Shown here piece after piece: positions 13,500 to 56,296 of a stretch of DNA of 64,000 bases. The position numbers and the translations under genes were made by a program. The number at the start of each line of letters is the position of its first letter. Positions within the stretch are counted from its first letter, which is position 1. The notes beneath the pieces are model-generated. The model searched no databases, had not been told where the DNA came from, and worked only from the letters and a program-made list of their open reading frames with translations. The stretch covers positions 1 through 64,000 of the IMG/VR virus record IMGVR_UViG_3300033156_000150. One strand, given 5' to 3'. This DNA is from a virus.

Positions 13500-13732
13500 T
13501 GGGTGAAAAAGTGCGTAATGAGTGGACTCGCGAGGGACTGATTCAGACGGCTATGCAAGTCCTGCGTGAGTTTGAGCGACACGGTCTTGTCGTGCGTGTG
13601 GAGGAGTTTTTGGGCATGAAGATCCCCGAGACGAGATTGCGAGTAACCCTGGGGAAAGAGGAAAGGCCAATGACGCAGAGGTTGGTGGAGGAATGTACTA
13701 AGTGCCTGCGCTCTAGGGGAGGGGAGGGGTGA
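13499..13732 (+). CDS. Small hypothetical protein
   Basis: A 77-aa charged helical protein overlapping the protease stop by one base and the next start by four. The centre reads VVRVEEFLGMKIPETRLRVT. It could be an inhibitor or partner of the protease on position alone; nothing in the sequence proves that. Confidence 0.5.
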   Translation: MGEKVRNEWTREGLIQTAMQVLREFERHGLVVRVEEFLGMKIPETRLRVTLGKEERPMTQRLVEECTKCLRSRGGEG

Positions 13733-14364
13733 GTTACGAGTACGAGTTCACGCGGAATTGGTTTCGCCGACGGAATAAGGCTACGTTTGAGCAGTTTGTG
13801 CTTCCGGTCTGGAAGGACAGACCGATCACGTGGCTGGAGATTGGGGTGTTCGAAGGCCAATCAACCGTATGGGTACTGGAGAATATACTAACCCACCCGA
13901 AGAGCAAGTTGGTGTGTATTGACCCTTGGCTGATGATGCCGCCTAAGTGGTCCGAGGAGAAGATCGAACAGGTCAGGCTGAGGGCACTCCGCAATCTGAA
14001 GCCGTGGGTCGATAGAGGCAAGTGTACTGTCCTTCGTGCTTTGTCTTGCATGGTGTTGGATAGGATGGTGTCTAAGGGGTTTGCTGGTGTGCGGAGGGGA
14101 GAGGTCGATGTGGTTTACATCGACGGGAACCATGAGGAGTTGGCTGTCCTGAGCGATGCGAGATATAGCTTCCAGTTGCTGAGGGTGGGTGGTTGGCTGA
14201 TCTTTGACGATGTGGAGATGAGTCGCCCGAGAGAACATCATGTGAAGCAGGGGTTGCATTGCTTTGTCGAGGAGGTAGGACAGTCAGTGCGGAGGGTGTT
14301 CAAACATCGGCACGTGGAAGCATGGGAGAAGGTTGACCAGACTAGTCGGGAGGTTCAAGGTTAA
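13729..14364 (+). CDS. Class I SAM-dependent methyltransferase (Methyltransf_24-like)
   Basis: A 211-aa protein from a GTG after GGAGGGG. Motif I is WLEIGVFEGQSTVWV, the acidic strand is VCIDPW, motif IV is VVYIDGNHEE, and LLRVGGWLIFDDV follows, as in the family often found in sugar and glycan methylation clusters. A related protein is encoded at 50.2 kb. The acceptor is unknown; a sugar or small molecule is more likely than DNA. Confidence 0.75.
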   Translation: MSYEYEFTRNWFRRRNKATFEQFVLPVWKDRPITWLEIGVFEGQSTVWVLENILTHPKSKLVCIDPWLMMPPKWSEEKIEQVRLRALRNLKPWVDRGKCTVLRALSCMVLDRMVSKGFAGVRRGEVDVVYIDGNHEELAVLSDARYSFQLLRVGGWLIFDDVEMSRPREHHVKQGLHCFVEEVGQSVRRVFKHRHVEAWEKVDQTSREVQG

Positions 14365-19422: not shown

Positions 19423-20658
19423 ATGACTGCATCACGCTTGTTGAGCGAACTTCCGAGGCCCCTGAGTGACTGGCGATGCGTGCTAGATTACCCAGGGGCA
19501 GACATCGGGGAAAAGATTAACGCAGCAGTTGCGGACCTGCCTGATGAGGGTGGTGTCGTGCTTCTGCCTGATGGATCTCATACTATTGAGACGCCTGTTT
19601 TGATTGACAAGGATGGGGTGGCGTTGAAGGGAGTTGGGACGTTTCCGGGAGCGGTATGGACGTATTGTGGTACTCGGTTGGTGAGCAGTATCACCACGGC
19701 ACCTCCTATTTCGATTGGTGTTGCTGGAAGTACGACTAGGTTCGGTGTGTGCCTAGAGGGTTTTGGGCTGACACAAACTGCGGATACAACTTATCCGCTG
19801 GTGCATGTGGTGAAAGCCGCCTGGGGTCATATCAGGGACTTCCACCTGTATGGGTCGAAGTCAGGTGTTAGTTGGGGCGGTAGATCAGCCGTAGGAATGA
19901 AGTTGGGGGGTCCAGACGGCAACTATGCTTCCTACGGTTGGAGGCTGAGAGACGTGCATGTCAACTATGCGGAGGATGGTCTGGTAGCAGAAGCGTCGCA
20001 TGGGTTGCAGGTGTTTGGTGGACTTGTCTATGGCTGTCGCAGAGGCATTGTGATTGGTGAGAATCAGACGCCTACGGGCATCGGTTTCCACGGGTTTGAT
20101 GTGGAGAACAATGTTATTGGATTTGACGTTCGGGCAGGCCGGGTGCTTAGTTGGCACAACACCTACATGGAGGGAGCTTACGGTCCTGGGACTGTTGAGG
20201 AAGATATGTATCTCTTCAGAATCGGAGCGAGGGAAAAGGTGCTGGGAATGGTTATCAATGGATTGTATGTGCAACTGGGAGGAGCAGAGTTCCGGCACGC
20301 ATATGGAATCAGACTGGAGAGGGTCCAGGGACTGAAGCTAGCTGGACTAAAGACGGCAGCCGGATGGGACTACCTGATTCAAAACGTGGCAACGGATGTG
20401 GACGACGTTGTGATTGAGTGTAGCGACATTAGTTGCCCGTTGACAGACGACTACACCGGAATCAGGGCCATACTCGGGTGTGGAGACAAGGGCCAGGTGT
20501 GTTTCCCGAATTTGCCGACCAGTGATCCGGCACGTGATGGTGAGCTGTGGCTAGACAGTGGAACCCTGAAGGTCTCGACGGAGGAGAGTTCGAGCAGCAG
20601 TGGTTCGGCTGGTTCTAGCAGCAGCTTCAGTTCTAGTTGTTCGAGTTCGTCGAGTTGA
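19423..20658 (+). CDS. Beta-helix tailspike-like protein with Ser-rich tail
   Basis: A 411-aa protein. Residues 20-60 match the pectate-lyase-3 entry (DYPGADIGEKINAAVADLPDEGG, shortened here: GADIGEKINAAVADL), followed by repeated beta-helix turns (LEGFGLTQTADT, VYGCRRGIVIGENQTPTG). Such folds form phage tailspikes and depolymerases. The last about 25 residues are almost pure Ser with one Cys, a tail type shared by three other virion proteins here. It probably binds or degrades a surface polysaccharide. The catalytic residues are not evident. Confidence 0.75.
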   Translation: MTASRLLSELPRPLSDWRCVLDYPGADIGEKINAAVADLPDEGGVVLLPDGSHTIETPVLIDKDGVALKGVGTFPGAVWTYCGTRLVSSITTAPPISIGVAGSTTRFGVCLEGFGLTQTADTTYPLVHVVKAAWGHIRDFHLYGSKSGVSWGGRSAVGMKLGGPDGNYASYGWRLRDVHVNYAEDGLVAEASHGLQVFGGLVYGCRRGIVIGENQTPTGIGFHGFDVENNVIGFDVRAGRVLSWHNTYMEGAYGPGTVEEDMYLFRIGAREKVLGMVINGLYVQLGGAEFRHAYGIRLERVQGLKLAGLKTAAGWDYLIQNVATDVDDVVIECSDISCPLTDDYTGIRAILGCGDKGQVCFPNLPTSDPARDGELWLDSGTLKVSTEESSSSSGSAGSSSSFSSSCSSSSS

Positions 20659-24616: not shown

Positions 24617-24798
24617 CCGAGCAAAGGGATTTGTCGGCGTGGTTGTCAGAATTGGATCAGGCAGCAGAGCAGGTAGCCGAAACAGTGGCAACCATGTGGT
24701 GGGCTATTTTCCGTAGGTTGGTAGAAAAGGGTTTCAGTGAGGAACAGGCTGTTGAGATAGTAAAGGCAATGGTACATGGCCGAGGTTATTTACCATGA
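24613..24798 (+). CDS. Small helical protein
   Basis: A 61-aa protein overlapping the connector stop (ATGA). Two helices (LSAWLSELDQAAEQVAETVA and FSEEQAVEIVKAMV). It overlaps the next gene by 23 bases. Function unknown. Confidence 0.5.
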   Translation: MTEQRDLSAWLSELDQAAEQVAETVATMWWAIFRRLVEKGFSEEQAVEIVKAMVHGRGYLP

Positions 24799-25660
24799 TC
24801 CGCTGCGGGTTGTGCGCCCGGGCAGAGGTGAGGTCGATTTGGAAGGACTCTGGGCAGGACAGCCCGGTTTTCTCGTTTGTGGTGGTCCGAGTCTGTCTAA
24901 GGTGGACCTGTCGTTACTGCGCAGTAGGGGAGTTGTGTCGGTTGGAGTCAACAACGCAGCCGCATGGGCGCCGGTGAAGGCTTGGACGTTTGGGGATACA
25001 CAGAACAAGTTTCATCATGGGCTATTCCTCGACCCTGGTGTTATGACGTTTGCTCCCATTCCGAAGTTGAGGAAAACGATACACGTGAAGCGAGACGGAA
25101 GGTTCTACGCAACTGATGTAAGGGTAGCCGACTGTCCGAACACGTATGGATACGAGCGCCGCACGATGTTTGTGCCACATACTTTCTTCACCGATCCGTG
25201 GGCACACTGGGGCAGTGGCAAACATCAGCCTCCTGGTGAGGAAGGGGTTGGATGTTTATGTACGATGTTGCTTGGTTTGCGGTTGTTGATATATCTTGGT
25301 GTGAGGAAGGTATATTTATTGGGTGTTGATTTCTGTGGTACTGAAGATGGCAAGTGCTACGGTTTCCCAAATGAGAAGCCGATTCGTCGTAAAATAAAGT
25401 GGAGGTATCCAAAGGAGCGTAAGATGTTGGAGTTGTTGATGCCGGAAATGGAGAAGAGAGGGATCGAGGTTTTCAACGTAGGGCCTTGTACTAAGTTGGA
25501 TTTGTTTCCAAGGGTATGGTATGAGGATGCGATCGAGGATTGTTGTAAGGGAGTAGGGAAGGAGCCCTTGGATACAACTGATTGGTATAACAGGAGGGCA
25601 CATAGGGAGGCTGAGGCGTGTGGTGTGTCGTTGAGGAAGAGTGAGTTACTTCGGATATAG
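24776..25660 (+). CDS. DUF115/MAF-like protein (glycan enzyme candidate), copy 1
   Basis: A 294-aa protein with VCGGPSLSKVDLSLLRSRG, VGVNNAAAW, FHHGLFLDP and KVYLLGVDF, a layout like DUF115/MptE-like and flagellin-glycosylating MAF proteins, which have a sialyltransferase-related fold. A paralogue lies at 48.8 kb (FLVCGGPSGKQLDLSLLNQRG). It is probably a nucleotide-sugar-dependent transferase or pyrophosphokinase-fold protein; its substrate is unknown. Confidence 0.55.
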   Translation: MAEVIYHDPLRVVRPGRGEVDLEGLWAGQPGFLVCGGPSLSKVDLSLLRSRGVVSVGVNNAAAWAPVKAWTFGDTQNKFHHGLFLDPGVMTFAPIPKLRKTIHVKRDGRFYATDVRVADCPNTYGYERRTMFVPHTFFTDPWAHWGSGKHQPPGEEGVGCLCTMLLGLRLLIYLGVRKVYLLGVDFCGTEDGKCYGFPNEKPIRRKIKWRYPKERKMLELLMPEMEKRGIEVFNVGPCTKLDLFPRVWYEDAIEDCCKGVGKEPLDTTDWYNRRAHREAEACGVSLRKSELLRI

Positions 25661-34870: not shown

Positions 34871-34911
34871 ACCGGCTGCGACTTTGGTTGGTTGCAGACG
34901 GTTTCTTTTTT
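34871..34911 (+). terminator. Leader hairpin followed by T-run (attenuator candidate)
   Basis: ACCG-g-CTGC pairs with GCAG-a-CGGT across a 14-nt loop, followed directly by TTTCTTTTTT, in the 5' leader between promoter P5 and the gene at 34925. Such a hairpin plus T-run is an intrinsic-terminator pattern and could attenuate late transcription. Confidence 0.5.
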
Positions 34912-34924
34912 AGTGGAGGTTTCA

Positions 34925-35449
34925 ATGAGCAAGAAAGTTACGTTCTATCTGGGTCCGGCAAGCGGTTTGAGTAAGCGTCAGTTGACGATCACTCGTATGC
35001 CGAAGGCAGGCGACGATGATACGCCTTCGGCGACGGTTAATGCGACGCTTGGCGCAACGACGACTATCACTACACAAACGCTACCGGATAATCAGATTTG
35101 GCAGGCGAAGTTGGTGGATACTAAGACGAGTGGTGAAGTAAGCGACCCGGATATCCTTAACTTCCATACTGGCTCGCTTCAGTTTCCTGGGCCGAGATCA
35201 CCGGATCGCTTGTCGATTCTCAGTATGGAAGACATGAGCTCAAGTAGTAGTTGCAGTTCGACCAGTAGTGGGAGTTCAAGTAGCTGTAGCAGCACGAGTT
35301 GTAGTAGCACAAGCAGTGGGAGTTCAAGTAGTTGTAGTAGCACCTCGAGCAGTTGCAGTGAATCTGCGGGAAATGAGAGCAGCAGTTGCAGCTCAGTATC
35401 CTCTTCGTGTTCGAGTAGTGTGAGCAGCAGTTGCAGCTCTGGTCTGTGA
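34925..35449 (+). CDS. Virion-associated protein with Ser/Cys-rich tail
   Basis: A 174-aa protein. Residues 1-95 are beta-rich (KKVTFYLGPASGLSKRQLTI), like a small decoration or head protein. From about residue 102 to the end it is a low-complexity tail of Ser with regularly spaced Cys and Thr (SSSSCSSTSSGS type). Codons in the tail vary (AGC, AGT, TCG), so it is selected at the protein level rather than being a simple DNA repeat. First gene after P5; a role on the capsid surface is plausible. Confidence 0.6.
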   Translation: MSKKVTFYLGPASGLSKRQLTITRMPKAGDDDTPSATVNATLGATTTITTQTLPDNQIWQAKLVDTKTSGEVSDPDILNFHTGSLQFPGPRSPDRLSILSMEDMSSSSSCSSTSSGSSSSCSSTSCSSTSSGSSSSCSSTSSSCSESAGNESSSCSSVSSSCSSSVSSSCSSGL

Positions 35450-41532: not shown

Positions 41533-42351
41533 ATGAGCACACGGTCACTTGCTAATATCAAGGTACAGGTCAAGTTGACGGGCACCTTGGTCAACACGTT
41601 GAACGATGGCAGCCAAACCTCGGTTGACCATCCTGACTTGAACTACTCGCCGAGTCTAGAGAACGGTGTTGGAGCACTACAAGCCGACCGTGGTTGGATG
41701 GTGGAGAACCGCACCCTCTCCTCTGGTTCATCTGAGACGATTGACCTCTACACCCTCGATGGTATCGACATTGGTTTGGGTGCCGGTAAGGATGCCGTGG
41801 GCCAAGAGGTGGAGCCGTACAAGGAGATTGTTAGCATCGCCATCGTGAACGAGAATTCGCTGGGCAGTGCCGGGCAACTGGAGATTGAGCCTGGTGACAC
41901 CGATGGATGGGAACCTATTGGGAAACATACGGTGGATTGGGGCGGGGCACTCAAGGGACAAGGAATCCTGTTCAAGTTGCAAACAGCAGCCAATGGCTTC
42001 GCTGTAACGCCAACATCGCGGAACGTAAAGTTGACGGCCAACGGAGGGGATGTTACCTACTCGCTCTACTTGCTCGCCCGGAGTGATGAGGAGGAGTCGA
42101 GCAGTAGCAGCAGTCTCAGTAGCTCGAGCAGCAGTTCGTGTAGCTCGACTAGCTCAAGTGAATCGGCTGCATACTCTAGCAGTTGCAGCTCCACTAGTAG
42201 CCAGAGCACGTCATGTAGTAGTAGCCTAGGCGAGAGCAGCTCGAGTACAAGTCTCTCAAGCAGTTGCGAGTCGTCTAGTAACACAAGCAGTTGTTCGAGC
42301 ACATCGTTCTCGAGTGTGAGTAGTACAAGTAGCAGTCAGTCGTGGAGTTAA
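41533..42351 (+). CDS. Tail-region protein with Ser-rich tail, paralogue 1
   Basis: A 272-aa protein. Residues 1-188 are beta-rich (DGIDIGLGAGKDAVGQEVEP, TYSLYLLARSDEE) and share layout with the next gene (HPDLNYS/HPNLNYS, GAGKD-VG, YSVYLLAR/YSLYLLAR), so the two are tandem paralogues. Residues 189-272 are a Ser-rich tail with scattered Cys and Thr. They lie between the tail terminator and the tube protein, which suggests a virion surface or tail-decorating role. Confidence 0.65.
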   Translation: MSTRSLANIKVQVKLTGTLVNTLNDGSQTSVDHPDLNYSPSLENGVGALQADRGWMVENRTLSSGSSETIDLYTLDGIDIGLGAGKDAVGQEVEPYKEIVSIAIVNENSLGSAGQLEIEPGDTDGWEPIGKHTVDWGGALKGQGILFKLQTAANGFAVTPTSRNVKLTANGGDVTYSLYLLARSDEEESSSSSSLSSSSSSSCSSTSSSESAAYSSSCSSTSSQSTSCSSSLGESSSSTSLSSSCESSSNTSSCSSTSFSSVSSTSSSQSWS

Positions 42352-42354
42352 ACA

Positions 42355-43065
42355 ATGGCGCGGTCGATGTCGAGTGCTAGAGCGATTATCAGGATGAGTG
42401 CGTCACTGCGCAATCTGCTTGGTGATGGCAAATATGCGACTGCATCTCATCCGAACCTAAATTATAGTTACTCGTTCGAAGATGGAGTTGAGGGTGGGCA
42501 GTGTAGTCGAGCGTGGCAGTACACGGGCAGGACGCTGACTAAGCAGCCGATCGACATAGAAGGCATCACTTATGATGTGCTGGACTTGTACTCACTCAAA
42601 CAAGATATTGGGGCTGGTGCTGGTAAAGACGGCGTTGGGGCTGACACTGAACCATACTGGGAGATCGTTGCTATTGCAATTGTGTGTGACTCGGTAACTG
42701 GCAATGGTGTTTTGGAGATCATGCCTGATGGGACAAATGGTTGGTCGCCCATTGGGTTACACACTTCGGCCCGCGGTGGCGCTTTGCGTGAAGGTGGTTG
42801 TCTGTTCAAGTGTCAGCCAGATGCAGATGCCTTTGGAATCACAGCGGACCGGCGGCGAATTAAGTTGAGAATTGAGGGCGATACTGGCAATACGGTTACA
42901 TACTCGGTGTATCTGCTTGCTCGACATGATGTTGAAGCGTCGAGCAGTTGCAGCTCGACAAGCACGAGTTCTAGTAGCAGTACCAGCCTCAGTTGTTCGA
43001 GCACGAGCAGTAGCACGAGTCTCAGTTGTTCAAGCACTAGTACCAGCTCGAGCCAAAGTGCCTGA
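42355..43065 (+). CDS. Tail-region protein with Ser-rich tail, paralogue 2
   Basis: A 236-aa paralogue of the preceding protein. The globular part reads HPNLNYSYSFEDGVEGGQCS, WSPIGLHTSARGGALREGG, and YSVYLLARHDVE; the last about 42 residues are a Ser/Cys/Thr tail (SSCSSTSTSSSSST). Only the repeated fold and the tail are recognisable; function is inferred from position. Confidence 0.65.
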   Translation: MARSMSSARAIIRMSASLRNLLGDGKYATASHPNLNYSYSFEDGVEGGQCSRAWQYTGRTLTKQPIDIEGITYDVLDLYSLKQDIGAGAGKDGVGADTEPYWEIVAIAIVCDSVTGNGVLEIMPDGTNGWSPIGLHTSARGGALREGGCLFKCQPDADAFGITADRRRIKLRIEGDTGNTVTYSVYLLARHDVEASSSCSSTSTSSSSSTSLSCSSTSSSTSLSCSSTSTSSSQSA

Positions 43066-47642: not shown

Positions 47643-48821
47643 ATGCGAGAGAAGTTTCCATACAAGCGACCTGGTCAGGTTTTAAGCGCTCGGCACGTCA
47701 ACCGACTTAGCAAAGTAGCCGAGAGATTTGCTGAGTTTCGGGGAGGTTCGCATCTTGACGTATCGCACAACGAAGATGGAGTGTCCATCAATGCGCCTCC
47801 GCCGTGGAAACAACGGCTGCTCAAAATTACTCAGATGCCGCAGGGAAGTGAAGGTTTCTACAGGGCACAGGAAGGTTACTACGACTACCAGGAGCAAACA
47901 TGGAAGGTAAGGACTGATACTACATGGAAAGTGGACTCCGTTATCATGGGGAACCAGTTGCAAGTAGGAGATGTAGTTGTTGCCTATTGGGACCGGCAGC
48001 GTGGGGCATGGATACCAATACCCACGACTCCCATCCGGCGGTTCGAGTTGCAAGAATCGCTGAATCCGGAGGACTCAGCGGAGGCTAAGATGCTGTTGTG
48101 GCAGGATGGCGAATTGGTAACTGCTGAGGACATAGTAGTTGTGCATGAGGTGGTGGGAACGTATTGGGGATTGGAAGGAGACATTGTCGGGTGTCAATGG
48201 TTCAACGATAGCAACCGATGGGAAGTCGTTATTGGGCGCCGTGGACTGAAGTGGTTTGAATGCACAACAAACTGCATACCTCCTCGTGACTATACTGTTA
48301 TGGCAGAGGACGCTGCTGGTATTGAGACTAGGCTATACTTGAAGAGTAGTGATCCGGGGGACGCAAACCGCCCGCTTGGTGTGTTGCGTGGAGGCGTTGC
48401 TGGGCACCAAGGCAGTCAGGTTTATGCTGCTTGGAGCAGAGAGTATCATCGTTGGGAAGTCATTACTGGACAGTTCGAAACCACGTTGTTTGGGAATGTC
48501 AACGACCCAGGGGGAATACCGGGTGGAGGATCTGGGCACGTGAGTCTTGTGTGGCCCGTGGTACAAGAGGGAAATGTATCCTTGATGCCTGCCGGTGAAA
48601 TGGTGAAGGTAGCAAACTGGGCTTTCCCAGACATACCAGATGGCACGCGCGTTGCGATTGCCTTTGACCCTGTCTATCAGCTATGGCTAATCATCGGTGT
48701 TGGACCGTATGTTAATGATCAGTTGTCGGTATCCCAGGAGGTTGTTACCTCAGTTAACTTTGGCGACCAAACCACACAGACAAAGACACTTGAACTGGCA
48801 TGGTGGAACGAAGTGAGTTGA
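47643..48821 (+). CDS. Tail/baseplate structural protein
   Basis: A 392-aa protein from ATG 47643. The start reads REKFPYKRPGQVLSARHVNRL, followed by repeated beta domains with similar motifs (GVLRGGVAGHQGSQVYAAWS, WEVITGQFE, WEVVIGRR). Its role is probably part of the tail tip or fibre. It is the last gene of the virion block and overlaps the following glycan gene by 22 bases. Confidence 0.55.
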   Translation: MREKFPYKRPGQVLSARHVNRLSKVAERFAEFRGGSHLDVSHNEDGVSINAPPPWKQRLLKITQMPQGSEGFYRAQEGYYDYQEQTWKVRTDTTWKVDSVIMGNQLQVGDVVVAYWDRQRGAWIPIPTTPIRRFELQESLNPEDSAEAKMLLWQDGELVTAEDIVVVHEVVGTYWGLEGDIVGCQWFNDSNRWEVVIGRRGLKWFECTTNCIPPRDYTVMAEDAAGIETRLYLKSSDPGDANRPLGVLRGGVAGHQGSQVYAAWSREYHRWEVITGQFETTLFGNVNDPGGIPGGGSGHVSLVWPVVQEGNVSLMPAGEMVKVANWAFPDIPDGTRVAIAFDPVYQLWLIIGVGPYVNDQLSVSQEVVTSVNFGDQTTQTKTLELAWWNEVS

Positions 48822-49768
48822 GCTGTGTTTACTGGCAGGAAGGCCAGTGTCTCTTGGACCGTCCTTCGTGCAAGCGTTGCAGGGCACGCTTGACGTTGGA
48901 CGATCCTGCTTTTGTCTCAAGGTGGAAGGACCCGTTGTTGGTCACAGACAGGCACAAGCAGCCGACGGAGAGCTTGAGAGGTCTTTTGGCTGGTTGCAAT
49001 GTATTCCTGGTCTGTGGGGGACCTAGTGGCAAGCAGCTAGATCTCAGCCTGCTGAATCAGAGAGGCGTTTGGACAATGGCCGTCAACAACATGGCGGCAC
49101 ACAAGTCGTTTCGGCCCAATGCGTTCGTCTGCGCCGATCCTCCGAGGAAGTTCCACCACGCCATATGGCTGGATCCAGCCATAATGAAGTTCGTGCCGAC
49201 AGTGAAGTTGCGGTCCAGGCGGGGTTATTTGAGACGTAAGATGCCCGATGGTTCCTTCTGTGACTTGGGACGTACAGTGTCTGATTGCCCGAACGTATGG
49301 GGATTCAAACGGGAGAGCTGGTTATGGCCCGATGAGCGTTTCTTTCTTAGCAAAGCAGCTCTATGGGGGAACCATGACGTCGGAGTGAAAAAGACAGGGG
49401 AACCAAAGGGAGTTAGCACAATGTTGCTGGCTCTCCGGCTGTTGGCATACCTCGGAGCAAAGCGTATCTTCCTGGTTGGTGTTGATTTTCGCATGACTAA
49501 GCAGGAGGCTTACAGTTTTGAGCAGGAGAGGTCCGATGGGGAGGTAGCTCATAACAACCGGTTGTTCTCCGTGGTCAACGACTGGCTGTGCCGGATGGAA
49601 AGCGATGGGGTCTTCAGGAAGTTTGGCGTTGAAATCTACAATTGCTACCAGCGCAGTGGACTAAGGGCGTTCCCGTATGTGCCCTATCCCGTGGCGTTGA
49701 GGGAGTGCTGGAACGACATTGAGCATACAATCGACTTGAGTCGCTGGTATGATGATGAAGAGAAGTGA
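48800..49768 (+). CDS. DUF115/MAF-like protein, copy 2
   Basis: A 322-aa paralogue of the protein at 24.8 kb: FLVCGGPSGKQLDLSLLNQRG, AVNNMAAHKSF, FHHAIWLDPAI, FLVGVDF. It has an extra N-terminal cysteine-rich part (CVYWQEGQCLLDRPSCKRCR) that could bind zinc. It opens the glycan island. As with copy 1, a transferase or MptE-like fold is likely. Confidence 0.55.
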   Translation: MVERSELSCVYWQEGQCLLDRPSCKRCRARLTLDDPAFVSRWKDPLLVTDRHKQPTESLRGLLAGCNVFLVCGGPSGKQLDLSLLNQRGVWTMAVNNMAAHKSFRPNAFVCADPPRKFHHAIWLDPAIMKFVPTVKLRSRRGYLRRKMPDGSFCDLGRTVSDCPNVWGFKRESWLWPDERFFLSKAALWGNHDVGVKKTGEPKGVSTMLLALRLLAYLGAKRIFLVGVDFRMTKQEAYSFEQERSDGEVAHNNRLFSVVNDWLCRMESDGVFRKFGVEIYNCYQRSGLRAFPYVPYPVALRECWNDIEHTIDLSRWYDDEEK

Positions 49769-49773
49769 CCCAT

Positions 49774-49798
49774 ATACTAATTTTGCACAAATTAGTAT
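49774..49798 (+). promoter_or_regulatory. AT-rich perfect inverted repeat
   Basis: ATACTAATTT and AAATTAGTAT form a perfect 10-bp inverted repeat with a 5-nt loop, in the 56-bp gap before the cupin gene. It stands out from the GC-rich surroundings and resembles an operator or weak hairpin. Confidence 0.5.
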
Positions 49799-49824
49799 GA
49801 AATCTGTATTTGGAGAACCGCTGT

Positions 49825-50205
49825 ATGATTGAGGTGCCCACGTTCGACGTACCTCCCATAGGGCCAAGGCAAGGGAAAGTGTGGGGGGACACTCAGTTAC
49901 TGTTTGCTCACCATGGCGTTGAGGTACACAGGATCAGGTTTCGCGCCGGTGCTTACTGTTCGAAGCACAAGCACAAGCACAAGTGGAATCGCTTTATCGT
50001 GCTTCGCGGAACTTTGAAAATCAACGTATGGTGGGATGGGGTAGGTGAGGACGTAACCATAGTGGGGCCAGGGGAGGTGACAGACGTGCCTCCAGGTCAG
50101 TTGCATCGCTTTGAAGCCCTAGAGGATGGCGAGGCTTTGGAAATCTATTGGGTTAAGCTCAGTGCCAACGACATTGTGCGGGTGGATCAGGGAGGCAGAA
50201 GCTAA
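49825..50205 (+). CDS. Cupin-domain protein
   Basis: A 126-aa single-domain cupin: SKHKHKHKWNRFIVLRGTLK carries the metal-binding His residues and the second motif is VPPGQLHRFEALEDGEALEI. It resembles the C-terminal cupin of sugar-phosphate isomerases and dTDP-sugar epimerases. With the neighbouring glycan genes it may act on a nucleotide sugar. The start is at 49825; 49810 is possible. Confidence 0.7.
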   Translation: MIEVPTFDVPPIGPRQGKVWGDTQLLFAHHGVEVHRIRFRAGAYCSKHKHKHKWNRFIVLRGTLKINVWWDGVGEDVTIVGPGEVTDVPPGQLHRFEALEDGEALEIYWVKLSANDIVRVDQGGRS

Positions 50206-50768
50206 TGCCTGGGTTGCGCAGAAGGCAACGGGGGAAACTCAAGCAACTGCTCTTGGGGGTTGGCAGAAAGGACCTCTTTGGAGTTGAAGTGGGAACGTAC
50301 AAGGGTGAGTTGGCTAGCTGGATCCTCCGACGTTGCCCGGTAACGCGACTCTGGGTGGTGGATCTGTGGGATAGTGAAGTGGCTGCCAAGACGATGCTGT
50401 TAAAGGAGAACATGACTACAGTAGAGCGGGAAGCAAGACGTCGGCTAAAGCCGTTTGGGGAACGAGTGGTCATTGTAAAAGCTGACTCAGCTGAGGCAGC
50501 TAACTACTTCCTAGATGATCAACTCGACTTTGTTTACATAGATGCTTGCCACCTGTACGAACACGTGAAGAGGGATGTAGTAGCTTGGTGGCCGAAGGTA
50601 AGGAAGGGCGGAGTCCTTTGTGGACACGATTATGGTGGGATGGGTGATGTGTGTTGGGGTTGGGGTGTCAGGCGTGCCGTTGAAGAGTTTGCTTGCGAAC
50701 GCTTGCTTGAGGTGGAAACTGATATTGAATCAAGGACATGGTGGATATGGAATACACAACAGTCGTAG
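50205..50768 (+). CDS. Class I SAM-dependent methyltransferase (Methyltransf_24-like)
   Basis: A 187-aa protein with FGVEVGTYKGELASWIL (motif I), LWVVDLWD, DFVYIDACHLYEHVKRDVVA and VRKGGVLCGHDYGG. Its C-terminal sequence matches methyltransferases of surface polysaccharide clusters. It overlaps the cupin gene by one base and probably methylates a sugar. Confidence 0.75.
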   Translation: MPGLRRRQRGKLKQLLLGVGRKDLFGVEVGTYKGELASWILRRCPVTRLWVVDLWDSEVAAKTMLLKENMTTVEREARRRLKPFGERVVIVKADSAEAANYFLDDQLDFVYIDACHLYEHVKRDVVAWWPKVRKGGVLCGHDYGGMGDVCWGWGVRRAVEEFACERLLEVETDIESRTWWIWNTQQS

Positions 50769-51544
50769 GTGTCGACTCCAAGACGATTCGGCAATTGTCC
50801 TACACGTTTGTTACGTGGAAAGTCAAAAAGCCTTCGCTGTGGAGACACCCATTGTGGGTTTTCTACGATCGCAGTCAACTGAGGGAAAGCGACGTCTTAT
50901 CATGCGTACAACATCCTATAGTGAAGCCCATTCCTTGGCCGCACCGCTGGATTGATCGGGAGGTGTGGCCAGGGGCGGGAGAGTGTAAGTGGGACGATCC
51001 GCAGCGTCACAAAATGCTCGCCGGCTTCGTGTATGTGGGGGAACTTGTGCAAACACCCTACTGGCTGAAGCTAGACACGGACGTTCTAGCTACGGGCATG
51101 GACAACTGGATTGACGAGAGGTGGTTTGAGGGCGAACCGGCGATAGTTGCCCAACCATGGGGTTACACGATCCCACCTGATCAGATGCAGAGGCTGGACC
51201 AGTGGGTCGATCACTACCGGCTGCCCCAATTCCAGGACACCGAGCCACTACGATTGATACCGGCACCAGGAGCTGAGCGATTGAGGCACAAGCGGATTTG
51301 TAGTTGGTGTGCCTTCTTCAACACAAGGTTTACTCAGCTTTGTGCTGACTTGGCTCGAGCATCGGTAGGTAATGGAATCCTACCCGTGCCTAGTCAGGAC
51401 GGATACATGTGGTATGTGGCTAAGCGCTTGGGTAAGGAGATCCGGCGAGTGCAAATGAAGAATCGTGGATGGACCCTGCGCAGTCGCATGTCGTCAATAC
51501 GTCAAACGACTGCCGACATTCTTGGTGGGAGATACAAGGAATGA
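50738..51544 (+). CDS. Glycosyltransferase-like protein
   Basis: A 268-aa protein with a metal-binding DxD at YWLKLDTDVLATG (about residue 110), followed by IVAQPWGYTIPPDQ and a basic, helical C-terminus. Probable GT-A glycosyltransferase. The sugar and acceptor are unknown. It overlaps both neighbours, so the island is translated as a unit. Confidence 0.6.
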   Translation: MVDMEYTTVVGVDSKTIRQLSYTFVTWKVKKPSLWRHPLWVFYDRSQLRESDVLSCVQHPIVKPIPWPHRWIDREVWPGAGECKWDDPQRHKMLAGFVYVGELVQTPYWLKLDTDVLATGMDNWIDERWFEGEPAIVAQPWGYTIPPDQMQRLDQWVDHYRLPQFQDTEPLRLIPAPGAERLRHKRICSWCAFFNTRFTQLCADLARASVGNGILPVPSQDGYMWYVAKRLGKEIRRVQMKNRGWTLRSRMSSIRQTTADILGGRYKE

Positions 51545-52437
51545 AAGGAAGGGCCGTTTGCTACCTGATTTCTGGGCCAGCTCATTTGCCTTACCTTGTC
51601 GTGTCGTTATACACGCTCCGGAAGCACTGGTCTGGCGAGGTTAGGGTTTATGTATGGCCGGAGTCGCAATCGATTGTTGAAAGAATTGCTCAAGACAGTC
51701 GGTTGGACATTCAGGTCATACCGAGAGAACCACGATACAGGGGAAAGAACGCACAGGGCTTGGACAGGATCCGCCTTGCGCAGGAGGTCAAAGACGTCAC
51801 GTTCCTCTACCTTGATGCCGACAGTACAGTGCATCACGAGGACCTGGCCGATCTCTTCAGAGTAGCAGAGCAGTGTGGTTACACAGCCACCCAGTTTTGT
51901 GATTGGGTGTCGTGCGGAGCGAAGATATCCAGGCGGGTGGACCGCCTCAGGAGCGTCATTGAGGGAGAGAGGCATGGCTGGATCGATGCGGTGCTGGATC
52001 CCTCTGCAAGATGGCCCTCGGTCAACTGTGGTGTGTTTGCCTCGCGGTGCGACTCCCCCGTGCTGCCTGTGTGGGAGAAGTGGACGTGGGAGGCAAGAAG
52101 CCTCTTCATCGCCGACGAGGTAGCTCAGCATCCTATGCTGCCCATGTTTGCTCCTCGCGGCCAGTTGAAGGTGGCCACTGGATACGGACGCTGGAACAAC
52201 TCACCGCTATACCAGTCATTGAAACTGAGGGATGATGAAATAGTGGTGATGCACTACCACGGTGATTCCAATGTGCGGCCCGTGGACAAGTCGCCTAGGG
52301 GATTTGCATGGTGGTGGCCCATTTACCAGGAATGTCTGTCGTATAATATAGGTGGTATATCAGAGTGGAGGTTGGGCGTTAGGAACAAGCACTTGGACAA
52401 GATTGAGAAAGGGGTCTGCAATGGATCTGAAGGTTGA
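51541..52437 (+). CDS. Glycosyltransferase (GT8-like)
   Basis: A 298-aa protein with a GT-A fold: AVCYLISGPAHLPYLVVSLY, FLYLDADSTVHHEDL (DxD), WPSVNCGVFASRCDSP and VVMHYHGD. The layout is that of GT8-type transferases. It starts in an ATGA overlap and overlaps the following gene by 17 bases. Its nucleotide sugar is unknown. Confidence 0.7.
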   Translation: MKGRAVCYLISGPAHLPYLVVSLYTLRKHWSGEVRVYVWPESQSIVERIAQDSRLDIQVIPREPRYRGKNAQGLDRIRLAQEVKDVTFLYLDADSTVHHEDLADLFRVAEQCGYTATQFCDWVSCGAKISRRVDRLRSVIEGERHGWIDAVLDPSARWPSVNCGVFASRCDSPVLPVWEKWTWEARSLFIADEVAQHPMLPMFAPRGQLKVATGYGRWNNSPLYQSLKLRDDEIVVMHYHGDSNVRPVDKSPRGFAWWWPIYQECLSYNIGGISEWRLGVRNKHLDKIEKGVCNGSEG

Positions 52438-52918
52438 AACACCGAAGGGATGTATCTCGTTCTGTCCTATTGGTCTGCCCGACCCGTTTTGGCTGGCAAC
52501 GTATCTGTGGTGGAACGGGTTGGAGCCGTCGTCTTCCGAGCCAATGCTGAGGGTGGCGATTGTGCGTCACCCGGTCATGTGGCAGTTTGAAAGGTGGATG
52601 CAAAGGTCATGGTTCAATGGAGCTACTCTCTCATTGGGGGACTTCATTGAGCAACGACTGCGCACCTATGCCACAGAACATTGGCAGTTAGTTCAGCATG
52701 GGAGCTTCGACTCCCTCATCCGGGTAGAGGATATCCCATATTGCTTGGATGATACTCTGAAGCCATTGGATGTCGAACTGGAAATGTATGGTGGAGATCG
52801 CATCACAACTCCGTTCCTACCGTTTCTGTTTCCGCTTAGCAAGTGGAGGAAAGAACCGTGGTTTCAAAAGGTGATGGAGGCCGATGCAAGGATTGCAGAA
52901 ACATGCGACTACTTCTGA
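52421..52918 (+). CDS. Sulfotransferase-like protein (short)
   Basis: A 165-aa protein started at 52421. IVRHPVMWQFERWMQRSW resembles the 3'-phosphate (PAPS) binding motif, and SLIRVEDIPYCLDDTL the conserved RFEDL region of sulfotransferases. The 5' P-loop (PKxGTT) is not recognisable, so it may be a degenerate or inactive member, or a different fold. Confidence 0.45.
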   Translation: MDLKVETPKGCISFCPIGLPDPFWLATYLWWNGLEPSSSEPMLRVAIVRHPVMWQFERWMQRSWFNGATLSLGDFIEQRLRTYATEHWQLVQHGSFDSLIRVEDIPYCLDDTLKPLDVELEMYGGDRITTPFLPFLFPLSKWRKEPWFQKVMEADARIAETCDYF

Positions 52919-53005
52919 GCAAACAGAATGTCTTGTGTAAGGCAGAGGATGAGGAGTACGTCGGAACCTATGTCTTTTTTGTTGATAGCTTTAAGGAGAG
53001 CAGCC

Positions 53006-53773
53006 ATGCAAGAAAAGCCGAGAGTGTTTGTAGTCATTCCTGCTCGTTTGTCGAGCAGCCGTTTGCCAAACAAACCACTCCGCACTGTTTGCGGGTCCAA
53101 GACTTTGCTCGAGTACACGGCGGAGCAAGCTGCAAAAGCTGTTAGGTTGACCGAACCCCATGTTGAGTTTGGTGGCTTGTGGGTAGTGACTGAGGACGAC
53201 GAGATTGTTGACTTGTGCAAGAGAAGAAACATTGACTGCATGCAAGTAAAAGGCGCTTGGTGTGGCATGGCTCGTGTTAGTTGCTTTGTTGATCGGTATC
53301 TGAAACGAAACGGAAACGTCCGTCCAAGCGATGTCATTATCGACTGGCAGGTGGATGAGCCGCACTTCACTAATGTTGAGGCTTTGGTGAAGTGTGCTCA
53401 TTTGTGGCCGCGTGCGATAACAACAGCATATACGCCATGCGCAGGACTGAGCTTAAACAACCCTAACGTCGTTAAGGTTGTGGTCGATCCTAGCTATGGT
53501 CATTGTTGCTGGTTCTCTAGGGTGCCTCCCGTTGGAATGTGGGTCTCTTCTGTGTGCCGACATCTTGGGATCTATGCAAGCACGATTATCGGCGCATGGG
53601 ATGGAAGTAACTTCCTTCCTCATAGGATGTCACAGACCGAAAAACTTGAGCAACTCACGTGGCTGCTCAGGGGGTACAAGTTCTATGGTGTGTGGGAGGC
53701 CTGGAGGAAGGACTTGATTTCGGTGGACACTGAGGACGACCTGGAGGAATTGAAGAGGAACCTCCGAAACTGA
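53006..53773 (+). CDS. CMP-sugar synthetase (KdsB-like)
   Basis: A 255-aa protein with IPARLSSSRLPNKPLRTV, the DWQVDEPHF variant of the NxQGDEP loop, RHLGIYAST and a C-terminal LEQLTWLLRG..VDTEDDLEEL, typical of 3-deoxy-manno-octulosonate cytidylyltransferases. These activate Kdo or a related sugar by CMP. The start at 53006 has AAGGAGAG. It probably feeds the transferases next to it. Confidence 0.8.
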   Translation: MQEKPRVFVVIPARLSSSRLPNKPLRTVCGSKTLLEYTAEQAAKAVRLTEPHVEFGGLWVVTEDDEIVDLCKRRNIDCMQVKGAWCGMARVSCFVDRYLKRNGNVRPSDVIIDWQVDEPHFTNVEALVKCAHLWPRAITTAYTPCAGLSLNNPNVVKVVVDPSYGHCCWFSRVPPVGMWVSSVCRHLGIYASTIIGAWDGSNFLPHRMSQTEKLEQLTWLLRGYKFYGVWEAWRKDLISVDTEDDLEELKRNLRN

Positions 53774-53788
53774 GTTGGGAGTCAGGCA

Positions 53789-54529
53789 ATGAAACCAATT
53801 AGGATCGTGTCCCATTGCTACGCTGACAAGTATGTTCACTTTGCTTGGGCATTGAAGTTGCAAGCGATGTCGCTACTTCAATTCCCATGCGAGTGCGAAG
53901 TGCGATGGACTGTTTGTTGGACGGAGTCCGACGAAAACACGAGCTGGGTAATGGATTGGGCTGCGGAACGGTTCAGGAAGCTGGACCGTCCTTTGTTTAT
54001 CGATCACATACCTTTGCCGAAGGAATGGTTGTGGCGTCGTGCTATCGGTCGTCACCGAGCCACGCTGTTCGGTCGAGATGGGTTGTTGTGGTTTACTGAC
54101 TGTGACTACCTTTTCGGCGAGGATTGTCTCAGTACCCTGGCACGCATGGAGTGGCCGGAAGGCGCGTCCGTTGCTTTTCCGAGCAAGGTGCTTATAAGCG
54201 AAACGCATGAGCAAGGGGATCAGTTGCTTTGCCAGGCATGGCATGTTGATAAATTGCCATTAGACGAATTTACTTTTGTGCCTCACTACTACAGCAAGGC
54301 GATAGGCGGTGTGCAGATTGTCCGGGCTGAGGATGCATGGCACAGAGGTTATGTGGAGCAGGGCAAAGGAAAGTGGCACCGACCGGTCAAGCAACCGTTT
54401 CCCAACTTCCGCGACGACATAGTGTTCCGGCAGGAGTGGTCGAGGTACGGGAGGATTGTGCCCATTACCTTGCCGAATCTGTATAGGGTGAGGCACACCA
54501 AAACGAGCTATCAGGAGGACAAGACATGA
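53789..54529 (+). CDS. Glycosyltransferase-like protein
   Basis: A 246-aa protein. LLWFTDCDYLFGEDCLSTL holds an acidic DCD metal motif, and YYSKAIGGVQIVRAEDAW resembles acceptor-site segments of GT-A enzymes. It sits directly after the CMP-sugar synthetase and may use its product. Overlaps the next gene by 4 bases. Confidence 0.6.
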   Translation: MKPIRIVSHCYADKYVHFAWALKLQAMSLLQFPCECEVRWTVCWTESDENTSWVMDWAAERFRKLDRPLFIDHIPLPKEWLWRRAIGRHRATLFGRDGLLWFTDCDYLFGEDCLSTLARMEWPEGASVAFPSKVLISETHEQGDQLLCQAWHVDKLPLDEFTFVPHYYSKAIGGVQIVRAEDAWHRGYVEQGKGKWHRPVKQPFPNFRDDIVFRQEWSRYGRIVPITLPNLYRVRHTKTSYQEDKT

Positions 54530-54792
54530 GAGACGTAGTGCAGATGTGTAACGAGGCACGCAGGGAGGTTGAGGACGCATACAAAGGCTTGAAAAGGACG
54601 GAACTCTTTACCCTGTTCGGGCATACGAAGCCTGTCACGGAAGGCAGAACAAAGGAATACTACGAGGCGCTGGAGGCGCACCATACTCTACGAGGAGTTG
54701 GTTATGGCGTGCTGTCTGACATCATGAAGGGTATTGTGAGCCTCATAGCAATAGTCGGCTGTGTAATGTTAGTGTGGAAGGCTCTCTTTTGA
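54526..54792 (+). CDS. Small C-tail-anchored membrane protein
   Basis: An 88-aa protein with a helical N-terminus and a C-terminal hydrophobic segment (GIVSLIAIVGCVMLVWKALF). No family is recognised. It is at the end of the glycan operon. Confidence 0.5.
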   Translation: MRDVVQMCNEARREVEDAYKGLKRTELFTLFGHTKPVTEGRTKEYYEALEAHHTLRGVGYGVLSDIMKGIVSLIAIVGCVMLVWKALF

Positions 54793-54800
54793 GGTATGCG

Positions 54801-55067
54801 ATGAACGAAGTGAAATGTGTTGGCGAACACATCAAGGAATGGTTGATAGAGCTCGGCGCTGATGGTTTGTGTAACGGAATCGAGTCGTGTTCTTGCAGTC
54901 TCGACGATCTGTTCCTTCAGTATGGTTGTGCTCCAACCATTTGTTTTCCAGCTAGGAGAGTAAGATGTTCCTGTGGACGTGAGTTCTTCGTAACGATAGA
55001 CTTGAGTGAGGGAACTTGTCCGAAATGTGGTAACAGGTGTGTCGTCAATAGCAGGAGCAAAGCGTGA
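54801..55067 (+). CDS. Zinc-ribbon protein
   Basis: An 88-aa protein with cysteines: CNGIESCSCSLDD, CSCG and CPKCGNRC; the last two pairs form a likely zinc ribbon. Start at 54801 (GAGGT upstream). No family is recognised. Confidence 0.5.
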   Translation: MNEVKCVGEHIKEWLIELGADGLCNGIESCSCSLDDLFLQYGCAPTICFPARRVRCSCGREFFVTIDLSEGTCPKCGNRCVVNSRSKA

Positions 55068-55076
55068 AGAGATTAA

Positions 55077-55216
55077 GCACCGGCGGCGTGGTGGGAACAC
55101 GCAACCTTGCGCGTCCGCAAAGTAGCTTGGTGAGGCAGGCGAACTGCGGAAGAAGGTGACTGGTGGCTGCTTGGCGCTTAAGGCCAGTCAACCGGGTTCG
55201 AATCCCGGCCGGGGCT
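55077..55216 (+). ncRNA. tRNA-like element with enlarged anticodon/variable region
   Basis: In a 189-bp gap. GCACCGG (55077-55083) pairs 6 of 7 with CCGGGGC (55209-55215); after 2 nt comes a D-arm-like hairpin GCGT-loop with GG-ACGC (55086-55102); CCGGG TTCGAAT CCCGG (55192-55208) is a perfect T arm adjacent to the acceptor. Total 140 nt, about 65 more than a normal tRNA. Two alternative middle folds exist: an anticodon arm at 171-187 (offset 55000) with loop GCTTAAG and 67 extra bases before it, or ACCTT/AAGGT arm (55104-55108/55153-55157) with a 44-nt loop and a long variable arm. U8 and U33 are not conserved, so it may be a degenerate tRNA, an intron-containing tRNA or a tRNA mimic. Confidence 0.45.
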
Positions 55217-55256
55217 TTGTGGTGTTCAATAAGCTCTTGCGTATGGGAGGAAAAAC

Positions 55257-55556
55257 ATGAATTCAAGCGAAGAAACGGAAGCAAGCAAAACTGGTGTACC
55301 AGCACGCGAAATCTGTAAGGCGTGCTACGAGGTCATCCGGGTGGGATTCACGGTCCCAGATGATCTGTGGTCCGCAGCAGTACCCGAACATCTCCGTCAG
55401 TCAACCTTGTGCCTGAACTGCTTCACCCGTCTGGCCGATGAACACATGTTGGCCTGGGACAAATCAATTGAGTTTTGGCCGGTGTCACTTCGGACTCATC
55501 TGCGCCAGGAGATGCCTTCCTGTACGGCAGGGCGGGCAGGAATAGAGAGTGGATAA
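55257..55556 (+). CDS. Zinc-finger-like hypothetical protein
   Basis: A 99-aa protein with GGGAGG upstream. CKACYEVIRVG and CLNCFTRLADEH, about 34 residues apart, suggest a zinc site. The middle holds DDLWSAAVPEHLRQSTL, a pattern of small phage zinc proteins. Function unknown. Confidence 0.55.
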   Translation: MNSSEETEASKTGVPAREICKACYEVIRVGFTVPDDLWSAAVPEHLRQSTLCLNCFTRLADEHMLAWDKSIEFWPVSLRTHLRQEMPSCTAGRAGIESG

Positions 55557-55573
55557 CAGAGGGAGGTTAACCC

Positions 55574-56296
55574 ATGGCTCGCTTTTTGAAGGACAAGGGT
55601 CTGTTGATCCAGCATATCCCACGTTGCGGTGGGACATGGGTGCAGAAGGCTTTGGAGATATTGTCTATGTATGGGGTCCGAACCAGCAAGTGGATCAGCA
55701 AGCAGCCAACACACATTCCAAAGAAGCATGCTTTGTTGTCCCACTACTATCGTAACAGTATGCCTAACGTCAAAGCGATCGCTGTGTTCGTTCGCCATCC
55801 TATTGGCTTCTACGAGTCAAATTGGCGGTGGATTCAACGATGCACACTGAGACACCAAAAGATGTTGGCGTTACAAGGAGGCCGTCCATGGACATGGCAT
55901 CCACAGGCACCAGCGGCAAGACGATTGCTTGAGCTGCCAAAAGACGCTACGTTCAATGATTGGGTGTTCCTGATGTTAGAGAAGGAGCCGATGTGGTACA
56001 CTCGCTTGGTGGATCTTTACGTTGGTCCTCGGGGTGGGGAGTTTTGTCAATACATTGGGCATACCGAATCGTTGTTGAATGACTTTATATCCCTAATGCG
56101 AAGTGTCGGGTACGGTGACATTATAGAACAAGCAATCGATCAGCTAAAACGTCTCGGCCGGGTTAATGCCGCTCCCGTTGGCGGTGTCAGTTGGGACGAT
56201 GACCTATTACGTCGGGTGTGCGAATCAGAAAAAGACGTGATTGACAGATTCTATGCGCAAGTGCAACATGCCCGGAAAGAGGAGGTGGCGCGATGA
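55574..56296 (+). CDS. Sulfotransferase family protein
   Basis: A 240-aa protein with a full set of motifs: QHIPRCGGTWVQKAL (5' P-loop for PAPS) and AVFVRHPIGFYESNWRW (3' motif). Sulfotransferases move sulfate from PAPS to a hydroxyl or amine on a glycan or small molecule. It is the last gene before the regulator. A sulfated virion or host glycan is the likely product. Confidence 0.7.
   Translation: MARFLKDKGLLIQHIPRCGGTWVQKALEILSMYGVRTSKWISKQPTHIPKKHALLSHYYRNSMPNVKAIAVFVRHPIGFYESNWRWIQRCTLRHQKMLALQGGRPWTWHPQAPAARRLLELPKDATFNDWVFLMLEKEPMWYTRLVDLYVGPRGGEFCQYIGHTESLLNDFISLMRSVGYGDIIEQAIDQLKRLGRVNAAPVGGVSWDDDLLRRVCESEKDVIDRFYAQVQHARKEEVAR

What the first reader, a model, noticed from the sequence alone, without database searches (positions are those of the whole stretch)
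48800..56296. A complete glycan-modification and sulfation island directly behind the tail genes
Within 7.5 kb are a DUF115/MAF-like protein, cupin, methyltransferase, two or three GT-A-like transferases, a KdsB-like CMP-sugar synthetase and two sulfotransferase-like proteins, most overlapping. With the dehydrogenase at 7.2 kb and the second DUF115-like protein at 24.8 kb this makes a set that could build a sulfated, methylated acidic sugar. I propose the Ser-rich virion tails as its target, or the host surface as an exclusion mechanism; the sequence does not decide.
Basis: partly seen in the sequence, partly recalled or inferred. Interest (0 to 1): 0.7.

Follow-up and report, generated by a model that had tools for sequence, protein, structure and literature searches.

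The report
Phage glycan cassette with serine-rich tails
An uncultured phage lineage carries a conserved set of sugar-attaching, methylating and sulfating enzymes beside its tail genes, and its head- and tail-region proteins end in long serine-rich tails that are the likely sites for those sugars, so these viruses may coat themselves in a mucin-like sugar layer.

Summary
The island is real and is a conserved phage feature, not a one-off. At 48.8-56.3 kb are a DUF115/Maf-like (GT42-fold) transferase, a cupin, a SAM methyltransferase, three GT-A-type transferases, a KdsB-type CMP-sugar synthetase and one sulfotransferase with intact PAPS motifs. A second sulfotransferase-like gene has lost its motifs. 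The same core gene order recurs in 29 of 30 related IMG/VR contigs; relatives vary in decorating genes (FkbM and other methyltransferases, GNAT, extra sulfotransferases, GSCFA). 'Complete' is not upheld: no NeuB, KdsA/DAHP synthase or convincing APS kinase was found, so precursors must come from the host. Four window proteins end in serine-rich tails whose serine codons mix the TCN and AGY blocks, so serine itself is selected; homologues carry such tails throughout the lineage. Best explanation: soluble, late-expressed enzymes O-glycosylate serine-rich virion tails in the infected cell, Maf-like, with a Kdo-type sugar, then extend, methylate and sulfate the glycan. No integrase, flippase or GtrA was found, which argues against host-surface conversion. 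Chemistry, virion location and acceptor site are inferred, not shown. Virion glycosylation is known in mycobacteriophages; this architecture appears to be a new variant.

The parts
48800..49768 (+). DUF115/MptE-like (Maf-like) transferase; predicted fold closest to GT42 sialyltransferases; probable CMP-sugar-dependent glycosyltransferase
   Evidence: (CstII/CstI E 1e-4, prob 1.0); present in 27 of 30 contigs surveyed
49810..50205 (+). cupin (Cupin_2 / mannose-6-phosphate isomerase C-terminal-like), perhaps a sugar isomerase or epimerase-type step
   Evidence: first or second gene after DUF115 in relatives
50205..50768 (+). SAM methyltransferase (Methyltransf_24)
   Evidence: family repeated 1-3 times in relatives' islands
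50738..51544 (+). GT-A-fold glycosyltransferase (GT_C3), invariant DxD at D113/D115; no Pfam family
51541..52437 (+). putative GT-A glycosyltransferase (GT_C4), DxD 'LDAD'; ORF opens at 51469 but alignment places the start at 51541
52421..52918 (+). degenerate member of a sulfotransferase-like family (ST_C7); PAPS motifs lost in this copy; ORF opens at 52352
53006..53773 (+). KdsB-type CMP-3-deoxy-octulosonate synthetase; ORF opens at 52928; Asp residues aligned to KpsU D98 and D225 kept
53789..54529 (+). putative GT-A glycosyltransferase (GT_C5), 'TDCD' motif; weak profile similarity to a beta-1,3-GlcNAc transferase and heparosan/chondroitin synthases
55574..56296 (+). sulfotransferase (ST_C12) with 5'-PSB 'PRCGGTW' and 3'-PSB 'VRHPIGFYES'
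   Evidence: (Sulfotransfer_2, E 0.004, below cut-off)
54526..55556 (+). three small ORFs of unknown function inside the island (54526 with a C-terminal TM helix; 54774 Cys-rich)
7181..8488 (+). UDP-glucose/GDP-mannose dehydrogenase family; possible source of a uronic acid donor; not part of the conserved cassette
24776..25660 (+). second, divergent DUF115-like gene
   Evidence: second copies also in two relatives (G064, G072)
13729..14364 (+). Methyltransf_24 gene whose closest relatives lie inside the island in L007, L009, L012 and L013
34892..35449 (+). head-region protein with Ser-rich C-terminal tail (47 Ser of 70), proposed acceptor
41533..42351 (+). structural-region protein with conserved N-domain and Ser-rich C-terminal tail (56 Ser of the last 84), proposed acceptor
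42355..43065 (+). paralogue of the previous protein with Ser-rich tail (27 Ser of 41), proposed acceptor
19423..20658 (+). protein of unknown function ending in a Ser-rich tail (18 Ser of 23), possible acceptor

Best explanation
This is a phage-encoded protein O-glycosylation cassette. It is expressed with the late structural genes and works in the host cytoplasm on the phage's own proteins. The KdsB-type enzyme activates a 3-deoxy-ulosonic acid supplied by the host (Kdo or a relative) to the CMP-sugar. The DUF115/Maf-like, GT42-fold transferase uses it, most simply by attaching it to serines in the Ser-rich C-terminal tails of head- and tail-region proteins (34892, 41533, 42355 and possibly 19423), as Maf enzymes do on flagellin. 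Three GT-A enzymes extend the glycan. The methyltransferase(s) and the sulfotransferase decorate it, with PAPS and most nucleotide sugars from the host. The result would be an anionic, mucin-like coat on the virion. Shown: gene content, conserved order, fold of two transferases, intact motifs, Ser tails and their protein-level selection. Inferred: expression timing, substrates, order of steps, acceptor, virion location and purpose.
For: Conserved cassette: core genes in the same order in 29 of 30 related contigs, at 38-57% identity for DUF115, GT_C3 and GT_C4 and lower for the rest. KdsB family: hits CMP-Kdo synthetases at E 2e-50 and CMP-Neu5Ac synthetases only at 1e-7; a relative passes an NCBIfam KdsB subfamily cut-off. 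The DUF115 model's best solved matches are the CMP-sialic acid transferases CstII/CstI, so maker and user of a CMP-sugar sit together. GT_C3 is GT-A fold. Relatives add FkbM, GNAT, Sulfotransfer_1/3/4 and GSCFA genes, all typical of glycan decoration. Acceptors: Ser-rich tails in the window and in essentially all complete homologues of the 41533 domain, about 3 kb either side of the capsid gene. Serine codons mix TCN and AGY blocks with frequent switches, so serine itself is selected. DUF115 was found on the contigs that reach far enough past the structural genes. In other DUF115 lineages a Ser-rich gene also lies nearby in 6 of 14 clusters. No integrase, GtrA or flippase found; the island's glycan enzymes show no clear TM segment. 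Precedent: Clostridium Maf puts Neu5Ac or Kdo on flagellin Ser/Thr (PMC11339370).
Against: No direct evidence of any glycan or of virion location. Within the lineage both the tails and the cassette are near universal, so co-occurrence has no informative negatives; tail-less homologues L134, L137, L138 and L139 show no cassette, but most of those contigs are short. Across other lineages, 6 of 14 DUF115 clusters against 1 of 10 background loci is only suggestive (one-sided p about 0.10). KdsB is missing from three otherwise full cassettes (L010, L012, L019), so a CMP-sugar made by the phage is not obligatory. DUF115 structural matches are distant (TM 0.36-0.49), and the catalytic residues of GT42 were not mapped. 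The window's degenerate ST_C7 and its missing FkbM gene reduce its own decoration capacity.
Confidence: 0.6

Rival explanations
1. Host-surface modification: the enzymes change LPS, capsule or another envelope glycan of the infected cell to exclude competing phages.
For: KdsB, cupin and UGD families are typical of LPS and capsule pathways. Polysaccharide gene clusters in jumbo phages and cyanophages have been read this way (PMC7824862, PMC9602691).
Against: No Polysacc_synt flippase, GtrA or integrase in the window's record or eight relatives; the island glycan enzymes show no convincing TM segment; the cassette sits in the structural cluster; the rival does not explain the Ser-rich tails.
Confidence: 0.15
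2. Virion glycosylation, but the acceptor is another virion protein (capsid, tail tube or tail tip) and the Ser-rich tails serve a different purpose, such as flexible spacers or adhesive fuzz.
For: In mycobacteriophages the glycans are on capsid and tail-tube C-termini (cited in PMC12619734). Ser tails occur on several unrelated proteins and could be simple linkers.
Against: Ser is kept specifically with mixed codon blocks, which a generic linker would not demand (Gly, Ala, Thr and others would serve). Ser-rich genes also lie near DUF115 in several other lineages.
Confidence: 0.17
3. DNA hypermodification: the transferases glycosylate modified bases of the phage genome.
For: The record encodes a 7-deazaguanine pathway (PTPS/QueD-like, radical SAM, GTP cyclohydrolase, TGT-like protein), so its DNA is probably modified. 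Viral glycosyltransferases acting on DNA are known (Pyle 2024, cited in PMC12619734).
Against: The cassette lies with the tail genes and not with the 7-deazaguanine genes; sulfotransferases, GNAT and FkbM are not expected for base modification (inference).
Confidence: 0.05
4. A loose set of unrelated accessory genes with no joint pathway.
For: Decorating genes vary from contig to contig and some families are weakly assigned.
Against: Core order kept in 29 of 30 contigs despite deep divergence and partial cassettes in divergent phages L024, L034, L035 and L038.
Confidence: 0.03

Closest known systems
Mycobacteriophage virion glycosylation (Freeman et al. 2023, as cited in PMC12619734)
   Same: Phage-encoded glycosyltransferases modify virion structural proteins at C-termini.
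   Different: Here there is a Maf/GT42-like transferase, a CMP-Kdo-type synthetase, sulfotransferases and multi-protein Ser-rich tails; no sequence match in the 50,697 phage records for DUF115, GT_C3, ST_C12, capsid or terminase.
Maf (DUF115) flagellin O-glycosylation with nonulosonic acids or Kdo (PMC11339370)
   Same: DUF115-type transferase with a CMP-ulosonate donor; O-glycosylation of Ser/Thr on a structural protein inside the cell is the proposed parallel.
   Different: Viral; acceptor would be Ser-rich tails, not flagellin; KdsB-type rather than NeuA/PseF-type synthetase; further GTs and sulfotransferases.
GT42 sialyltransferases CstI/CstII
   Same: Best structural neighbours of the DUF115 model.
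   Different: Low TM scores; about 13% identity; donor unknown.
KdsB/KpsU CMP-Kdo synthetases
   Same: Full-length homology, conserved signature; D98 and D225 positions of KpsU kept in the window copy.
   Different: Window copy scores below curated cut-offs; 'QVDEP' in place of 'QGDEP'; in most relatives N in place of D225.
Serine-rich repeat glycoprotein adhesins with their Gtf genes (from general knowledge)
   Same: Ser-rich acceptor encoded near its dedicated glycosyltransferases.
   Different: No Gtf1/2 or accessory Sec genes identified here; acceptors are phage structural-region proteins.
Jumbo-phage and cyanophage polysaccharide gene clusters (PMC7824862, PMC9602691)
   Same: Phage clusters of several glycosyltransferases and sugar-activating enzymes.
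   Different: Those are read as host-envelope modification; here a colinear cassette beside structural genes with Ser-tailed proteins.

Membership tests
KdsB-type CMP-ulosonate synthetase (52928-53773) | full-length homology to solved CMP-Kdo synthetases, better than to NeuA | tested here: met
   E 2e-50 against KdsB/KpsU, 1e-7 against NeuA (family profile)
KdsB-type CMP-ulosonate synthetase (52928-53773) | curated NCBIfam KdsB cut-off | tested here: not met
   window 107.5 bits against a subfamily cut-off of 193; relative L007 passes that subfamily cut-off with 199.7; no equivalog cut-off passed
KdsB-type CMP-ulosonate synthetase (52928-53773) | metal-site Asp pair (KpsU D98, D225) | tested here: met
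   both kept in the window copy; the second is N in most relatives
DUF115/MptE-like (Maf-like) transferase | Pfam MptE-like gathering cut-off | tested here: not met
   E 0.0036, 17.5 bits against 34.6
DUF115/MptE-like (Maf-like) transferase | fold related to CMP-sugar transferases (GT42) | tested here: met
   CstII/CstI are the only matches with E below 0.001, prob 1.0, TM 0.36-0.49
DUF115/MptE-like (Maf-like) transferase | GT42 catalytic residues | not tested
   no coordinates at hand for superposition
Sulfotransferase (55574-56296) | 5'-PSB and 3'-PSB PAPS motifs | tested here: met
   PRCGGTW and VRHPIGFYES, invariant core in the relatives aligned
Sulfotransferase (52352-52918) | 5'-PSB and 3'-PSB PAPS motifs | tested here: not met
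   motifs present in most relatives, lost in the window copy
GT-A glycosyltransferase (50738-51544) | GT-A fold with DxD | tested here: met
Phage virion glycosylation system | glycan on virion proteins | not testable with these tools
   needs mass spectrometry
Phage virion glycosylation system | glycan genes linked to structural genes | tested here: met
Serotype conversion (Gtr-type) systems | GtrA flippase and lysogeny (integrase) | tested here: not met
   no match in the window's record or eight relatives

The most novel reading that the evidence does not exclude
A widespread uncultured tailed-phage lineage makes viral mucins: serine-rich tails on several virion proteins, O-glycosylated in the infected cell with a Kdo-type acidic sugar by a Maf/GT42-like transferase, then extended, methylated, acetylated and sulfated by a conserved core with a variable set of decorating genes that gives each phage its own surface chemistry.
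Probability: 0.4. Interest if true: 0.82.

Novelty: new variant of a known kind. Interest (0 to 1): 0.62.

Why it matters
If true, phages make their own anionic, sulfated glycoprotein coat, with a dedicated acceptor and a cassette whose decorating genes turn over like serotype genes. That would extend virion glycosylation beyond mycobacteriophages, give a function to phage DUF115 genes that are annotated only as MptE-like, and offer a soluble O-glycosylation system with an obvious simple acceptor. The prediction is directly testable by mass spectrometry and by co-expression in a laboratory strain.

Tried and rejected
Host identification failed: two scans of the GTDB genome set with DUF115 (A6) and with the L038 transferase found no relatives. 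The portal gave only weak hits to Gordonia and Streptomyces phages; terminase and capsid gave none. A within-lineage 2x2 test of Ser tails against the cassette could not be powered, because both are near universal and most negative contigs end too soon. A first count of Ser-rich ORFs near DUF115 was discarded because out-of-frame ORFs in GC-rich DNA inflated it; the filtered count is. PDB sequence searches with the GT_C3, GT_C4, ST_C7 and ST_C12 profiles gave nothing useful; GT_C5 gave only a weak hit. Considered and rejected: a complete ulosonic acid pathway (no NeuB or DAHP/KdsA synthase), phage PAPS synthesis (APS kinase hits below cut-off and restricted to a short stretch), and serine tails as DNA slippage products (codon test; only two weak tandem repeats). 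The key mycobacteriophage paper itself is not held; it is cited through PMC12619734.
Full report
What the window is. The window is bases 1-64000 of an 84,946-base virus record, a tailed phage: terminase 9310, portal 30807 (weak homology), protease/MuF-type head genes, capsid 38233, major tail protein 43083, tape measure 44478. All genes named here are on the + strand. A 35.9-kb contig (IMGVR_UViG_3300033150_000554) gave 100% identical matches to nearly all window proteins compared.

The observation. The second of these (55574-56296) keeps both PAPS motifs, PRCGGTW and VRHPIGFYES. The first (52352-52918) belongs to a family whose members mostly carry PPRTGTTWF-like and VRHP..WL.S motifs, but this copy has lost them. 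Three overlaps shrink or vanish when starts are set by alignment (51541, 52421, 53006). Three small ORFs at 54526-55556 have no indicated glycan role.

More than chance. Searches with the DUF115, KdsB and sulfotransferase proteins and profiles brought about 80 loci from IMG/VR. Profile scanning shows one colinear cassette: tail gene A, tail gene B, DUF115, (GNAT), cupin, GT_C3, FkbM, GT_C4, methyltransferases, ST_C7, KdsB, GT_C5, (ST_C12). The order of the core genes agrees in 29 of 30 contigs, while identities to the window are 38-57% for DUF115, GT_C3 and GT_C4 and lower for GT_C5, KdsB and ST_C7, so it is an old, maintained unit. The variable part consists of FkbM, several methyltransferases, GNAT, Sulfotransfer_1/3/4, GSCFA and a SPASM protein. 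The window lacks FkbM. KdsB is missing from three cassettes that are otherwise full (L010, L012, L019).

What the enzymes are. The KdsB family profile finds CMP-Kdo synthetases (KpsU 1gq9 and KdsB) at E 2e-50, CMP-Neu5Ac synthetases only at 1e-7. The window protein keeps the two Asp residues aligned with KpsU D98 and D225. AlphaFold2 gave confident models of DUF115 (pLDDT 85) and GT_C3 (pLDDT 90) from the phage alignments. Foldseek against PDB ranks GT42 sialyltransferases CstII and CstI as the only DUF115 matches below E 0.001; TM scores are modest (0.36-0.49). GT_C3 matches GT-A transferases such as xyloside xylosyltransferase and GT6/GT15 enzymes. A CMP-sugar maker and a CMP-sugar-user fold in one cassette fit together. 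The phage does not make the acid itself: no NeuB or DAHP/KdsA synthase in this record or eight relatives, and no APS kinase above cut-off.

The acceptor. Four window proteins end in Ser-rich tails: 34892-35449, 41533-42351, 42355-43065 and 19423-20658. A profile of the conserved N-domain of 41533 found homologues in 55 loci, nearly all ending in a tail of about 60-90% serine. A capsid-based scan, not selected for tails, found them again: 51 of 57 domain homologues have a tail of more than half serine, and the other six are cut by the contig end or have longer mixed extensions. A second Ser-tailed protein lies about 3 kb upstream of the capsid gene. In several relatives the tail gene before DUF115 is also Ser-rich. 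The serine codons use both TCN and AGY blocks, with switches in roughly a third to two thirds of adjacent serine pairs. Because the two blocks are two base changes apart, this points to selection for serine and not to repeat slippage.

Link between cassette and tails. Contigs of the lineage that reach far enough past the structural genes carry DUF115; tail-less homologues L134, L137, L138 and L139 show none, but most of those contigs are short, so this is weak. Outside the lineage, DUF115 relatives were clustered at 60% identity: 6 of 14 clusters have a Ser-rich gene nearby, against 1 of 10 background loci (one-sided p about 0.10). Some of these are striking: in the largest cluster 47 of 63 loci have the Ser-rich gene, directly after DUF115 in the examples read (most of the others end first), and L034 and L035 carry DUF115, two or three transferases, FkbM, cupin and then a Ser-rich protein. 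This is suggestive, not proof.

Mechanism and target. Maf enzymes, which belong to the DUF115 group, attach nonulosonic acids to Ser/Thr of flagellin; the Clostridium enzyme also accepts CMP-Kdo in E. coli (PMC11339370). By analogy the phage DUF115 protein would place a Kdo-type sugar on serines of the tails, and the GT-A enzymes, methyltransferase and sulfotransferase would build on it. The enzymes look soluble, as needed for acting on virion proteins in the cytoplasm. Host-surface conversion would be expected to need a flippase or GtrA and often lysogeny; none was found. DNA modification is less likely: the record does have a 7-deazaguanine gene set beyond the window, but the cassette is elsewhere and includes a sulfotransferase.

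Comparison and novelty. Virion glycosylation at C-termini of capsid and tail-tube proteins is known for mycobacteriophages (cited in PMC12619734). No record among 50,697 phage genomes matched the DUF115, GT_C3 or ST_C12 proteins, and the literature searches found no description of a cassette like this or of Ser-rich virion tails as glycan acceptors (open-licence papers only). I rate it a new variant of a known kind.

Limits. No host could be assigned. Virion location of the Ser-tailed proteins is inferred from gene position. GT42 catalytic residues were not mapped. All substrate assignments are inferences.

Noticed in passing
G000 record about 65445-68360 (L085:1746-4660), beyond the window: 7-deazaguanine gene set: PTPS/QueD-like, radical SAM (QueE-like), GTP cyclohydrolase I-like and a queuine tRNA-ribosyltransferase-like protein (phrog_887, E 7e-41), suggesting modified phage DNA.
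   Followed up: partly
L010:2963-5629: 888-aa protein with a 703-residue tail of 63% serine using both serine codon blocks, an extreme version of the window's tails.
   Followed up: partly
window:34892-35449, 41533-42351, 42355-43065: The window's Ser tails carry recurrent cysteines (CSSTSS repeats), unlike most relatives; role unknown.
   Followed up: no
L038 (contig 2710264501_000005) and L274 (contig 2747843214_000001): DUF115-bearing contigs whose names look like isolate-genome identifiers, possible clues to hosts; L038 has a partial cassette. A genome scan with an L038 protein found nothing.
   Followed up: partly
window:56293-56499: Small XRE-type helix-turn-helix protein directly after the sulfotransferase gene, by sequence reading.
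   Followed up: no
window:57745-58776: DUF932 protein (E 7.5e-49) of unknown role downstream of the island.
   Followed up: no
L200, L203, L204, L205, L209, about 5.5 to 6.0 kb after the capsid gene: A homologue of the island sulfotransferase ST_C12 sits inside the structural module itself, after the Ser-tailed protein and before tail gene A where that gene is present.
   Followed up: partly
L286:4761-6788: 675-aa protein with a pure poly-serine run about 3 kb upstream of a DUF115 gene in an otherwise divergent phage contig.
   Followed up: no
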